Part shown: one piece after another, positions 1,772-13,700 of the stretch
Numbering within the stretch: position 1 is the first letter of the stretch
How the letters are laid out: each line of letters starts with the position of its first letter
DNA from: Hyperoplus lanceolatus
Lineage: Eukaryota > Chordata > Actinopteri > Uranoscopiformes > Ammodytidae
Reading direction: 5' to 3'
NCBI GenBank assembly: GCA_026929865.2
Contig: CM049404.1
Coordinates: 28,049,001 to 28,113,000, forward strand
DNA length: 64,000 nt
Position numbers and translations under genes: made by a program
The notes under the pieces: model-generated
Told to the model about the DNA's origin: nothing
What the model saw: the letters and a program-made list of their open reading frames with translations, nothing else
The model's database searches: none

Positions 1772-4700
1772 TCCGAGTCGGAGCAAGACGAGGAGTGTTC
1801 GGGCAGCATGGGCTCCGCGGGTGTGGCCGTAAGTCCTCTCTTATATTACGTATTTTCATATGTTTTGTTCTTACTAAAGCTATAGTGCGTAACTTCTGTC
1901 GCCCCCATGAGGAATTCTTGAGTAATTACACTTTCGGCGCAACTACATGAGGTTAGCCTTAGGTGATCCCAAATAGAAGTTATACCTCCTGCTGTATGTC
2001 CAGGTTTTTTCTCAGCAGTAGTATCAACAACTGAAACATTTCTTGGGCGCTTCCCGGGATTTTTGTGAGCTCCTGCGCCAGTGTCAGAGGGTGACACAAG
2101 TTTGTAAACACTGTTATACTGAGAAATACAGAGAGAGAGAGAGTTTTGTGGAGCTGATAGGCTTAATCAATTTTGTGTCAACCTCGTTTGGCATTAGCCT
2201 GAATGAAACCGACATTCATTTATATGAAACAGTTAAGCCCTATAGCTTTAACAAAACATTAAACCAACAAAAGAAGTTGAAGAATGATGTGTTGCACTGT
2301 GTGCAGTGTCATCATGGGTGTCTTCCACTCTGCGTCAGTTGGTCATGACTCAGTCATTTATAGGAACTGGATTAGAGGTTTGAAGCTTCAGCATTATCAG
2401 AAGTGCCCACACCAGGATGTGGACAGTAGGATGTGTGTGTGTGTGTGTGTGTGTGTGTGTGTGTGTGTGTGTGTGTGTGTGTGTGTGTGTGTGTGTGTGT
2501 GTGTGTGTGTGTGTGTGTGTGGAAAGTGAGAACATAGTGGCAGGTTTTCACTTTGAGACAGGCCAACAAATCGCTGTTTGAAAGTTAACACTAGGTTTTA
2601 AGGTGCGTGTTAGAATTAGGAATAGGTTAGGGTTAGTGTAAGGGTTGCGGTAAGGCATTTAGTTTTGATGGTTACGGTTAGGGTAAAGGGCTAGGGAATG
2701 CATTATGTCAAAGAATGTCCTCACAAGTATAGCCGTACAAATGTGTGTGTGTGTGTGTGTGTTTCTGTCATAGCTTGATCCTATAGAGAAGGAGTGGATC
2801 TACTCTGCGGCCGGTGCCAGAGTGCCTGACCTCTCTCAGCTGCTCAGACAAGACCCGCTGCTGGCTAACAAGAAGGTAGCAAAGCCCCTCTGCTAAGGAG
2901 GAGAAATCCACTTTGCTGCAAATTGGATCTTATTTTCATTTACTTTTCTTTTGGGGCCATCTGGCGGGATATATAACATCTGGTAACTTGGCGATAACGC
3001 TTCAACAAAAACGGATGGGGGTAAAAAAAAACTTGGAATGAAATTAGTGGACTGTTTCAGACGAACTCACAAGAATAGCCAAATGTATTGAGAAGGAAAA
3101 AATAAGAACAAATGCTAAAAATATAAGGCTACATATAATTTCTCCCATGTCCATTGGAAAGTGAGAAACTCTCAAGGGACCGCTATGAACTGAAAGGGTC
3201 GAGGGTCATGTGGCAATTTTTTGGGTAAACATTGGAAAAAACACATTACAAAGTGGTCCTAACATTTTGTGAATCTCTCCACAGCAAAGGAAATAATGTT
3301 TACTGTTTAGTTGTGATGAAGCGTTGAGTTGTGACCTCTTAAAACGGGACCGTATATTATATTGACCAACTTCATTTTTAATAACTATTACTCCAAAGGG
3401 TTTCTGCTGGAACATTTTCAAATAAAAAGCCTCATCAAACACAGCCAGTGTCGACTATAAGACAACATTTTGATAAAATCTCAGCACAGCCAGTAGTAAA
3501 AACAAGCTACTGATTAGCTTGCTTGCTGCAGTGCTAGTTCACTCACCCCTTTCCATCATGTGACCCTTGCCTTACTGTTTGGCATTGTGGTCCCTCGAGA
3601 GTTGAAACCCCATCAAAGCCAAACTACTCCCCATGATAGGGGAGACCAAAGTAGTCGGATGCAATAAAAAATGAAGAGACTTCTTGCTGTGGTTGTGTGG
3701 TATTCATGGTTTCACTAATTTATGCTTTTGTGTCTTCTCTTTTTGTCTGGGCTTCAATGCAGGACTTCACCTCAGTGAGTATTTGATGTGGCACCTTCAG
3801 AAAATGTTGCATGTTATGGTGAAGTCATAGTCATCATGAGCTCATAATATTTTGCTGGATCTAATTTAATATTATATGACCATTGTCTGACATAAAGCCT
3901 CTTTATTTTCTCATTTTGACACAATGTGACTCCCGACTGTGACCATGACCATCCTTCTCTTAGGGGGTAAGTTCTCTCATTTATACATCTGCCTGCACCG
4001 TGTGTGTATGTGTGTGTGTGTGCGCACTAACTCTGCAACAACACCTGCTTTAGGCCGTTGCCGACGTAAGGAAGTTAATCTACAGTTCACACTAATAAGA
4101 CTAACCAGATATATTTCAGCAGTGTTCCTCTGATCTTTCATCTGTGCGCCCGCGTATTTGCACAATGCAAGCAACACTAACAAAAAAAACTCCCTCTGTC
4201 TCTCTCTCAAAAAAACCCTGCGTTTTGCTTGTGTAACTTTCACAAGCTAAAACTCTTGTCCCGATCCCCTCCCCCCCTTTTTAAATAGTATTCTGAGAAC
4301 CCTCGTGTTAAAACATCCCAGATCATGCATTTCAAAAGGTCCACTATCAAAAGGATTATGAAAGATAGCTTTTTAGCTCCTGGTCGCCCCCCCACCCCCC
4401 CTGACAACCCAAATCCTTTTATTTGTCTCCCTGTGTGCGCTTAAGAGATTTGAGCTCATGTTTGTTGTCCCTCCCCTGTTCTCACACTGTCCTGGGACCA
4501 CCTTCTAAGAGTGTAGCCCTAAGCCGCCTGCCATCCCCACCCGGACAAGATAGCAACGGGCCCGCCATTGAAGTGTAATAGGGAGATGTGTGTGTGTGTG
4601 TGTGTGTGTGTGTGTGTGTGTGTGTGTGTGTGTGTGTGTGTGTGTGTGTGTGTGTGTGTGTGTGTGTGTGTGTGTGTGTGTGTGGAGAGGAGAGCAGTGG

Positions 4701-10700: not shown

Positions 10701-13700
10701 GATGCAAGTTCATCAATTCATGGCTTAAAAACCCTGAGCTGTAGAACTTCCTAGCGATAAGCTGCACGAGTGTCCACCTGTTGGGAGCGTGGGCGACGTG
10801 CGGATATGAGACAGGCTCTGCATGCAGAATTTTTTTTATTATTATTATTTATTTATTTTTTAAACCTAAATTGATATACAAATTATTTTCATAGCAGCTG
10901 CTGTGTGAACCTGGGGGAAACACTGGGGTTAGAGTAAGGGGCTAGCGAATGCATTATGTCCTTACAGGTATAGCTGTACAAACAGCTATACTTGTCAGTG
11001 TGTTTGTGCTCGTGTGTGTGTGTGTGTGTGTGCGTGTGCGTGTTGTAAATGCTTGCGTCTATTCTTTTCACACACGTTTTTGGTTGTCTTTGCGTGTAGA
11101 CTCTGGGTGTATCCTCAGCAGTTGTGTGGTGGGGGCCTCCAGTGTTCCCCTCCCTGACGTGTAGCTGACAGTAGAGGGCTGATGTGTGGGTGGGGCTCGG
11201 CTCTACGGGTCACACTAACATCATCAATCTTCCCCCCGCGTGACAGGCGGCCGGGCCCCCCAGCCGTGGGCACAGTGCCTTGTTGTTTTGTAATTAGGGC
11301 TCTGTTAGGATGGCAGGAAATCATCTCTCCATCCGCGCACTCCCCTCTGTGCACAGCTGGCCCGCTCATGCCCTCACACAGCCAATAAGAAACTGACCCA
11401 ACAACGCTCACTTTAGACAACTTGTAATGAGGCTATAGCAATTATCATGCCTTGACAATGGTACAGAACATTGGAGAATATTTGTATTATTATTAATAAT
11501 TTTTTTTTTCTGTTTTTGCACACAGACGGCTATGCACTGGGCTGCCAAACATGGCAGAGAGGACATGGCCTCGCTAGTGGCTGACGCAGGTGCTGACGTC
11601 AACACCAAATCAGTAAGTTCTTTTTTAATTTTGTCATTTTTATACACGGATTAAAAAAAATTATTCCTTTATTTTCTTTCAAACGGAATAGTTGGACAAT
11701 CACACATCCATAGATGAATGGATTGATGCCACTGAAACCATAATTCCTAGACAATCATTTTAAAATGGGAACTCCAGCTATTTAGTACCGCACAACAATA
11801 AGTCAGGCGAGATTCATGCCAGCTAGTGAAAGGAAAGATTTGTGCAGGATGGTGAAATGGCAAAAATCAAGCAGCAGAGACCACGATACCCTGACTTTAG
11901 TCTTGATCCTACATTTCCCATAATGCAACTCAATAGTATTTTTCATGCAGCGCTCTGATGTTCTGTACAAACCAGCCTCTATTCCACCACCTTCTAAGAC
12001 TCATTGAGGAGTGCCCCCAATCACCAATTAATCCATGTTATTTTTTTTCTCTTTTTCTTGCAGTATGTGAGTATCCAGGTTTTTTACATTGGGAGGTGAC
12101 AGGTTTGTACAGAAAGTTATTTGACTTGATGGGTAACTATGGGTTTGTGATGTAATGTTCCTAAATGATATCTATGGAGACCCAGCTGTGCAAATGTCTC
12201 ACAGCAACACGTGTTGTCGCCGGGCGCTAATAAATCATGTCATGTCATGTTAATTGTTTCCCAAAACAGTGCGTCCATGTGCCAGCCATGCAAAAACTCC
12301 ACAACTATGCAATTTTCAGTGAATTACCAAGCAATTATGTTTTTACCATTATCTTGTGTTTCCATAACCTTTGCTAATTTGTATTTTTTTTTCTTTTACT
12401 GGGCTGTTTTCATTGGCTGTGTCCGGGCCTGGGAAACTCTAGGGGGTAGGTACTAAAGCCTTCCAGTTATTCCACTTTAAACTGCCTCCGCCCTTTAATG
12501 TGACAGCAAAGAGAATCATTCTGAACTTTTTTTTCTTATTTTCCTTTTTGCCCTTCTCTTGTTTTTTTTTTGGTTCCTAGGGATACACGCCTTTACACAT
12601 CGCAGCGTTACACGGCCATCGGCATATTCTAGACCTGCTCATAGGGACGTATGGTAAAGGAATATTACAATTGAACTTGTTGGTGGTAACATAAATAAAG
12701 CAGTACTTTTGAGTTATACAATAAAGGTAGAGTCAGCGATTGTGGAGAATGTTTGTTGTCAGAATCCCTTTTTTTCAAAATAAGTGAATATTTCCTCACG
12801 ATCCACTACCTGTCCGTACTGTTTTTTTGCGCTGGAAAAAAATGAATACACAGCCCAGGCTCTGTAAACTGGTATGTAACAAAAGAAGGGGGCCCAAGGC
12901 AGCTAGCGACATGACTAGGCTGTGTATGAACACCAGATTTCTATTCAGCGCGCACAGTCCGGACAGGTAGCGGATGAGGAGATATTCAGTGATTTTGACA
13001 AAAAGTGATTTTGACAACCAGTGTCGGTGACTGAACCTATACATAATTGAACTTTTTTTGTTGCACATGCTTAAAAATATAAGCCCATTTACAATGTTTA
13101 AAATCATTACTAGTAAATCAATCATTCGCCATATTGAAGCCTTTGTTTTCTGTTAAATACATGTGCAGACAATCAGTGAGAGAGTGACGGATCTTTGTTT
13201 ACCTTGGGATCATGGGATGTTGCTTGAAGCTTTGGGTGTAAGGTATCAGTGAAGAGGATTACCAGATGCCTCCATTTACAAACATTTCATTTTTTCTTCT
13301 CTTATCAGGGGCTAAAGAAAACCTAAGGGACTACAGTGGCCATCTTGCCTGCCATTATCTCAACATCAAAGAACCCGAGGTTCCTCAAGAGGAAGAATGC
13401 GAGATACGTAAGTCCTTCATACTTTTGCTGATAAAATACAAACAATTTGTGATTATGTGTGTGTATGTGTCTTTGTTTTAGTGTAAAATAAGCTTAAAAT
13501 AAAGTTAAAAAAAATTAAAATAGGCTACAAATGATTTGAAGGATAATACATCACGATTTGATCTGTACAAAACAGTAATGTAAAATGAGAATTTGCAGTT
13601 TCACTGTGCCCAGCAGTCTTGATGCTAAGCTAACCAATTTCACATTTAACAGTGAGATATGGTAGTGGTACAAATCTAACTCTATAAAGAAAAGCAAATA

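What the first reader, a model, noticed from the sequence alone, without database searches (positions are those of the whole stretch)
3763..11540. Two candidate single-codon microexons restore the missing Gly-Phe of the SOWAH ankyrin repeat
Joining the exon ending DFTS (3774) to the one starting TAMHWAAKHG (11526) lacks two residues that SOWAH proteins carry here (D-F-x-S/T-G-F-T-x-L-H-W), one of which is the ankyrin Gly. In the 7.75 kb intron, GGG at 3964-3966 lies between ccttctcttag and gtaagt, and TTT at 6098-6100 lies between cttcctctaccacacag and gtaagt. They encode Gly then Phe, in the right order and phase. Either motif with a full six-base donor is expected well under once in an intron this size, so finding both in order is hard to dismiss. 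Exons of 3 nt are known in vertebrates but very rare; two in a row after a 12-nt exon would be exceptional.
Basis: partly seen in the sequence, partly recalled or inferred. Interest (0 to 1): 0.87.

Follow-up and report, generated by a model that had tools for sequence, protein, structure and literature searches.

The report
Four single-codon exons in fish SOWAH
A fish ankyrin-repeat gene appears to add four of its amino acids one at a time, each from its own three-letter exon, an extreme gene layout that genome annotation often gets wrong.

Summary
GGG (3964-3966) and TTT (6098-6100) lie as stated between AG acceptors and GTAAGT donors, and are the only one- or two-exon set of 1-6 nt found to supply Gly-Phe; 0 of 400 shuffles match their score. 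Of relatives' proteins labelled lgn, mostly from short transcript-like contigs, 18 of 18 covering site 1 read DFxS-GF; 18 of 21 covering site 2 read HG, the other 3 run in from intron. Annotated models scatter (GF, F, G, none, VS), and models running into or out of introns show separate boundaries for the codons. Relatives' intron peptides point to three of the four positions; TTT 6098 rests on motif, order and exclusion. No RNA of this species was available, and the second GGG has a poor near pyrimidine tract. The gene is an intron-bearing Sowah near an Irx-type homeobox exon. Best reading: four in-frame single-codon microexons, an extreme variant of a known kind.

The parts
1772..1828 (+). 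coding exon SESEQDEECSGSMGSAGVA, phase 0-0
   Evidence: similar stretch in P0011 and P0076
2774..2875 (+). coding exon LDPIEKEW...LANKK, donor gtagca weak
3763..3774 (+). 12-nt microexon DFTS, donor gtgagt; read-through DFTSVSI* as at the ends of P0098, P0099, P0102
3964..3966 (+). single-codon microexon GGG (Gly), AG-free stretch of 64 nt upstream, donor gtaagt
   Evidence: read-through of P0101 and P0205 best matches here
6098..6100 (+). single-codon microexon TTT (Phe), AG-free stretch of 89 nt upstream, donor gtaagt; position rests on motif, order and exclusion
   Evidence: F is a separate exon in relatives' models, but no relative's intron peptide placed here (0 of 4)
11526..11612 (+). 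coding exon TAMHWAAKHG...NTKS, phase 0-0
12064..12066 (+). single-codon microexon TAT (Tyr here, mostly His in relatives); read-through YVSIQVFYIGR*
   Evidence: P0066 HVSIPVFKSGR best matches here (1 of 15 tested)
12443..12445 (+). single-codon microexon GGG (Gly); weak near pyrimidine tract, AG-free stretch of 109 nt, donor gtaggt
   Evidence: P0007, P0044 (one base out of frame) and P0226 read-in peptides best match 12407-12446 (3 of 7 tested)
12581..12653 (+). coding exon GYTPLHIAALHGHRHILDLLIGTY(G), phase 0-1
13309..13407 (+). coding exon (G)AKENLRDYSGHLACHYL...CEI(Q)
13960..14135 (+). last coding exon (Q)FQVTQVARER...RPRKFSR and stop TGA at 14133-14135
   Evidence: joined to 14133, the first base of the stop

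Best explanation
This is the intron-bearing Sowah gene of a ray-finned fish. Each joint between its ankyrin units is cut by a run of introns that leaves single codons standing as exons: DFTS(12 nt)-GGG-TTT before TAMHW, and TAT-GGG before GYTPLH. All begin and end on codon boundaries, so splicing restores Gly-Phe and Tyr-Gly and the ankyrin repeat spacing, while skipping any one removes one residue without a frameshift. Shown here: the motifs, their non-chance fit, the presence of GF and HG in relatives' transcript-like proteins, and separate boundaries for the codons in relatives' gene models. Inferred: that this species splices them the same way; that recognition is from the intron side (near-perfect donors, long AG-free stretches that allow distant branch points); and that neighbouring introns are removed stepwise because a 3-nt exon cannot be bound at both ends at once.
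For: Unique solution and chance tests. Proteins labelled lgn: 18 of 18 covering site 1 read GF; 18 of 21 covering site 2 read HG, the other 3 being intron read-in. One of the 18, P0128, is a mixed cluster whose longest contig is 36.9 Mb; without it 17 of 17 and 17 of 20, the GF and HG ones on contigs of 1.0-2.7 kb for exons that span over 12 kb here. Models retaining an intron give DFTS|VSI, DFTS-G-VS, DFTS-G-F-VS, KS-H-VS; models starting in or including an intron stretch give Q|F|TALHW, LSQ|G|F and KLQ|G|GYT. Localisation: of 31 such peptides, chosen by eye from those and scanned over about 128,000 places each, 6 have their best place on the predicted site (G1: P0101, P0205; His: P0066; second Gly: P0007, P0044, P0226; P0044 one base out of frame); P0223 ties for best one base out of frame at G1; P0029 is second at the second Gly. 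Pfam with the four codons: Ank_4 44.2 to 57.2 bits, Ank 42.8 to 49.5, Ank_3 45.2 to 47.3, Ank_5 36.1 to 38.7, Ank_2 down from 51.6 to 50.9. Many printed alignments to ankyrin structures show a two-residue gap next to KS-GYTPLH.
Against: No RNA and no relatives' genomic DNA. The boundary evidence is from predicted gene models. 25 of 31 peptides do not place singly best at the predicted site, including all four for Phe. The second GGG acceptor scores -4.8. The window has Tyr where relatives mostly have His. The lgn set includes contigs that read intron (P0093, P0097, P0115, P0118; P0076 reads KS-H then intron), so it is not pure spliced mRNA. Many annotated models omit one or more codons (site 1: no DFTS 68, F alone 50, G alone 13, none 11 of 194; site 2: none 48 of 202), so real skipping is possible; P0251 of salmon, cDNA-derived by recall only, has F without G. 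Five models read VI at site 1, which I cannot explain.
Confidence: 0.88

Rival explanations
1. The codons are real exons but regulated cassettes: G (and others) are often skipped, giving isoforms one residue shorter.
For: F-only models 50 of 194, G-only 13 of 194, KS-H only 15 of 202; P0251 salmon entry DFVS-F.
Against: 18 of 18 lgn proteins covering site 1 carry both G and F; aligners lose sensitivity for exons under 8-10 nt (passage of PMC7821500), so one-codon omissions are expected artefacts. The dropped Gly is invariant in a 36-sequence alignment, though those rows were chosen by me.
Confidence: 0.2
2. Different exons supply the residues: one 6-nt exon, off-phase microexons, or Phe from a longer cassette around 4478-4773.
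For: P0111 and P0184 contain a longer insert beginning F-S-H; its end matches window 4735 in 13 of 14 residues.
Against: No AG-GGNTTY-GT and no other one- or two-exon 1-6 nt set encodes GF at the thresholds used; the window copy of the cassette region has in-frame stops (4514: *P*AACHPHP), and P0184 still reads ...NLK-F-TALHW after it.
Confidence: 0.05
3. This species simply lacks the four residues and the sites are decoys.
For: Direct joins are in frame; models in relatives show them (site 1 none 11 of 194, site 2 none 48 of 202).
Against: Chance tests, conserved Gly, broken ankyrin spacing; lgn proteins covering site 1 all carry GF (18 of 18).
Confidence: 0.04

Closest known systems
Vertebrate microexons (3-30 nt)
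   Same: very short, mostly in frame, conserved, missed by aligners (passages of PMC7821500, PMC8042270, PMC13149111)
   Different: those described are typically neural cassettes (passages of PMC13149111); here four 3-nt exons in two tandem pairs, apparently included by default, in a repeat domain
RPS24 consecutive microexons (3, 18, 22 bp) and Dctn2 adjacent microexons (9, 6 nt)
   Same: consecutive microexons, in RPS24 one of 3 bp (passages of PMC11162997; PMC7821500)
   Different: alternatively spliced; at most one of 3 bp
Ncam, Drosophila troponin T and homothorax 3-nt exons
   Same: single-codon exons (passages of PMC8042270 and PMC7392893)
   Different: one per gene in the passages seen, alternatively spliced
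Plant 1-nt exons of APC11 and VPS55, adjacent 5- and 12-nt exons in rice
   Same: conserved ultra-short exons, in VPS55 with GTRAGT donors, pervasively misannotated (passages of PMC8831610)
   Different: plants; no tandem single codons in the passages seen
Iroquois-Sowah regulatory block
   Same: Sowah gene in the same stretch as an Irx-type homeobox exon
   Different: the passages seen concern enhancers and retrogene replacement, not exon sizes (PMC5803294, PMC12311624)

Membership tests
microexon | exon of 30 nt or less between AG and GT | tested here: met
   four of 3 nt, one of 12 nt, as sequence motifs
microexon | keeps the reading frame | tested here: met
   open frame of 205 codons across all junctions
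microexon | present in mature mRNA | tested here: inconclusive
   residues present in relatives' lgn proteins (18 of 18 at site 1, 18 of 21 at site 2); no RNA of this species
microexon | conserved position across species | tested here: inconclusive
   three of four positions pointed to by relatives' intron peptides (6 of 31 peptides); Phe not located; no relatives' DNA available
microexon | neural, SRRM3/4-dependent regulation (of the neural class) | not testable with these tools
   no expression data
Sowah protein family | sequence similarity over the ankyrin region to proteins named SOWAH | tested here: met
   (15 best listed: 84-88% identity over 205-206 columns)
Sowah protein family | N-terminal winged helix (PF25877) | not tested
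   its exons would lie upstream of the window; PF25877 is listed as precomputed for full-length relatives
Iroquois-Sowah block | linked Irx gene | tested here: met
   Homeobox_KN 1.5e-18 in ORF 25061-25894 +; motif recognised as Irx-type by recall
recursive splicing exon | exon splicing regenerates a competing 5' splice site used to drop the exon | not testable with these tools
   each 3-nt exon is followed by a GTRAGT or GTAGGT donor; order of splicing unknown

The most novel reading that the evidence does not exclude
Four constitutive single-codon exons in one gene, in two tandem pairs at successive ankyrin-repeat joints, kept across bony fishes and sauropsids and spliced only by an obligatory stepwise, intron-defined order; the introns cannot be lost because they carry Irx regulatory elements, so the gene is frozen with codons standing alone.
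Probability: 0.35. Interest if true: 0.85.

Novelty: new variant of a known kind. Interest (0 to 1): 0.72.

Why it matters
Exons of 3 nt sit near the limit of what the spliceosome can recognise. Two tandem pairs, apparently included by default and seen in many relatives, make a natural minigene for asking how such exons are defined and in which order introns leave. It also shows an annotation failure: of 194 annotated proteins tallied that cover site 1, 31 have both residues, so many SOWAH models in databases lack conserved ankyrin residues.

Tried and rejected
Single 6-nt exon and off-phase 1-5 nt splits: none fit at the thresholds used. Longer microexons up to 30 nt: two (4871, 8222) score above GGG and TTT in the first intron, but none was needed by the protein. 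Own-genome search: not completed. The key paper on the Iroquois-Sowah block (10.1101/gr.132233.111) is not held, so I cannot say whether it describes these exons. Paper searches: SOWAHC with microexon 0 papers; single-codon exon 0; tandem/adjacent/multiple microexons or 3-nt microexon 10 papers; sowah with microexon or micro-exon 119 papers holding two of the three terms, 20 listed, none of those 20 with sowah, the other 99 not seen. No description of these exons was met in listings or passages; the library lacks most subscription journals. Localising peptides failed for 25 of 31. Structure prediction of P0122 put GF at the start of a helix (207-217) and HG in the stretch before the next (243-249); mean pLDDT 71.7, pTM 0.42; no fold search was run and nothing more rests on it.
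Full report
What is there. The window begins inside a SOWAH gene on the + strand. Joining eleven exons gives an open frame of 205 codons before the stop at 14133-14135. Among the 274 proteins fetched, the 15 best matches listed are 84-88% identical, led by Chelmon P0123 and with Xiphias P0127 among them. The exons proposed for Gly-Phe and Tyr-Gly are each 3 nt long. 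An Irx-type homeobox lies downstream, motif near 25.27-25.37 kb (Homeobox_KN 1.5e-18 in ORF 25061-25894), so this looks like the linked Iroquois-Sowah arrangement; that link is described in a passage of PMC5803294 that cites Maeso et al. 2012, a paper that is not held.

Observation. GGG 3964-3966 and TTT 6098-6100 and their flanks are exactly as stated. The next intron has the same situation. From T of TAMHW to T of TPLHI is 31 residues when spliced directly (counted), against the usual ankyrin period of 33 (recalled; many of the printed alignments to ankyrin structures have a two-residue gap there). TAT 12064 and GGG 12443 fill it.

Chance. With recalled splice frequencies and low thresholds, one- and two-exon sets totalling 6 nt were tested. 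Intron 3775-11525 has one solution for Gly-Phe, score 13.9; 94 of 400 dinucleotide shuffles have any, 0 of 400 reach it. Intron 11613-12580 has two solutions for X-Gly; the better one, TAT+GGG, scores 15.3; 15 of 400 shuffles have any, 0 of 400 reach it. Among control stretches of the same length elsewhere in the window (both strands, overlapping, 3+3 nt pairs only), 0 of 106 and 6 of 1026 have any such pair and none reaches the observed score. AG-NNN-GTRAGT occurs 8 times on + and 0 on - in 64 kb, three of them being these codons and three a TGA repeat in the same first intron. AG-free stretches before the four acceptors are 64, 89, 50 and 109 nt against a window median of 8; such lengths are met by 2.1%, 0.65%, 4.1% and 0.25% of window AGs, though the other acceptors of this gene also have long ones (30-82).

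Relatives. Three searches listed 120 proteins each: all 120 hits of the first, the best 120 of 3041 and of 790. 274 distinct proteins were tallied. I separated 35 with the source label lgn, which I take to be assembled sequencing reads (the tool does not define it); two ena proteins were left out. Of the 35, 22 cover a site. All 18 that cover site 1 read DFxS-GF; at site 2, 18 of 21 read HG and 3 are intron read-in. P0128 among them is a mixed cluster with genome records (longest contig 36.9 Mb); without it the counts are 17 of 17 and 17 of 20. The GF and HG ones then come from contigs of 1.0-2.7 kb, while the exons here span over 12 kb, so those are cDNA or retrocopies. Among 237 others, 194 cover site 1: no DFTS 68, F 50, GF 31, G 13, none 11, VS 11, VI 5, other 5. 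202 cover site 2: HG 63, none 48, VS 33, other context 32, H 15, Q or QG 4, remaining 7.

Boundaries. Several predicted models retain an intron or include part of one, which shows where a codon's exon stops. After DFTS: models ending DFTSVSI (P0098, P0099, P0102), the window reading VSI* too. After G: GVSLIIRPSVCTLCV (P0101), GVSFIIHTS (P0205), also P0105, P0112, P0119; window GVSSLIYTSACTVCV. After F: FVSISFS (P0107). Before F: Gln, as CAG would give, in P0031, P0038, P0047 and turtle P0081. Before G: LSQGF in P0223, whose APDCGDNHLSQG resembles window TPDCDHDHPSLR at 3929 one base out of frame. After His: HVS in many fish models and duck P0069. Before the second Gly: LAVFGNGKLQ (P0007) against window LAVSGPGKL*. 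In goose P0079 a second-site Gly is followed by VS, so His and Gly look separate there as well.

Localisation test. Thirty-one such peptides, picked by eye from those (not all of them), were slid over all six frames. Best place on the predicted site: G1 read-through 2 of 4, His 1 of 15, second Gly 3 of 7 (one of them, P0044, one base out of frame), Phe 0 of 4; the one G1 read-in ties for best (P0223) and one more second-Gly peptide is second (P0029). Introns diverge quickly, so misses are not strong evidence against, but TTT 6098 has no such support and rests on its unique motif, order and full donor.

Mechanism. Five of the six donors from DFTS through the second GGG are full GTRAGT; the sixth is GTAGGT. 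The exonic part of these donors is unlike the usual CAG (recalled), so pairing with U1 must lean on the intron. The last GGG has no pyrimidine tract next to its AG; a T-rich stretch ends about 40 nt upstream inside a 109-nt AG-free region, which suggests a distant branch point. That a 3-nt exon cannot hold U1 and U2AF at once, and so needs stepwise splicing, is inference from general knowledge.

Evolution. Signs of the same exons appear in teleosts, Polypterus (P0030: G and HG) and sauropsids: residues in P0042 and P0054, boundaries in P0069, P0079 and P0081. [quoted passage not shown] the turtle and bird models suggest an intron-bearing SOWAH survives somewhere in sauropsids. I could not check its location.

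Literature. Passages seen: PMC7821500 (aligner loss below 8-10 nt; adjacent 9- and 6-nt exons of Dctn2), PMC8042270, PMC7392893, PMC11162997, PMC8831610, PMC13149111, PMC5803294, PMC12311624. None of those passages describes tandem single-codon exons. The searches behind that were made, some of them capped lists.

Verdict. The kind is known (microexons); the number and arrangement were not described in what I could search.

Noticed in passing
25061-25894 +: Irx-type homeobox exon ([46 protein letters not shown]), Homeobox_KN 1.5e-18: the window holds the Iroquois-Sowah neighbourhood.
   Followed up: partly
4514-4790 +: Strongly conserved intronic element between the Gly and Phe microexons: APQRLHPLKDNLK at 4735 matches Myripristis P0184 in 13 of 13 residues, and the Oryzias model P0111 reads on much like the window (by eye), yet the window copy has stops at 4514. 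Irx regulatory element or alternative/poison exon.
   Followed up: partly
12407-12445 +: Stretch just upstream of the second GGG, poor in pyrimidines near the AG, resembles that of Aplochiton, Pleuronectes and a seahorse; unusual for a 3' splice site.
   Followed up: partly
P0012, P0121, P0163, P0191, P0197: Five models read DFTS-VI-TALHW instead of DFTS-GF; I have no explanation.
   Followed up: no
P0069, P0079, P0081: Duck, goose and turtle SOWAH models show intron boundaries, although a passage of PMC5803294 says the parental gene left the Irx locus in tetrapods.
   Followed up: no
1012-1046 / 1241-1275 and 7230-7255 / 8486-8511: Inverted repeats (35 nt, 97%; 26 nt, 88%) that look like small DNA transposons.
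   Followed up: no
39725-41983 -, 61221-63041 -, 26493-26798 -: Long ORFs whose first letters look like retroelement and Tc1-like transposase remnants, by eye only.
   Followed up: no
P0251, P0252: Two salmon entries that look like the same gene differ at site 1 by exactly the Gly codon (DFVS-F versus DFVS-GF).
   Followed up: no
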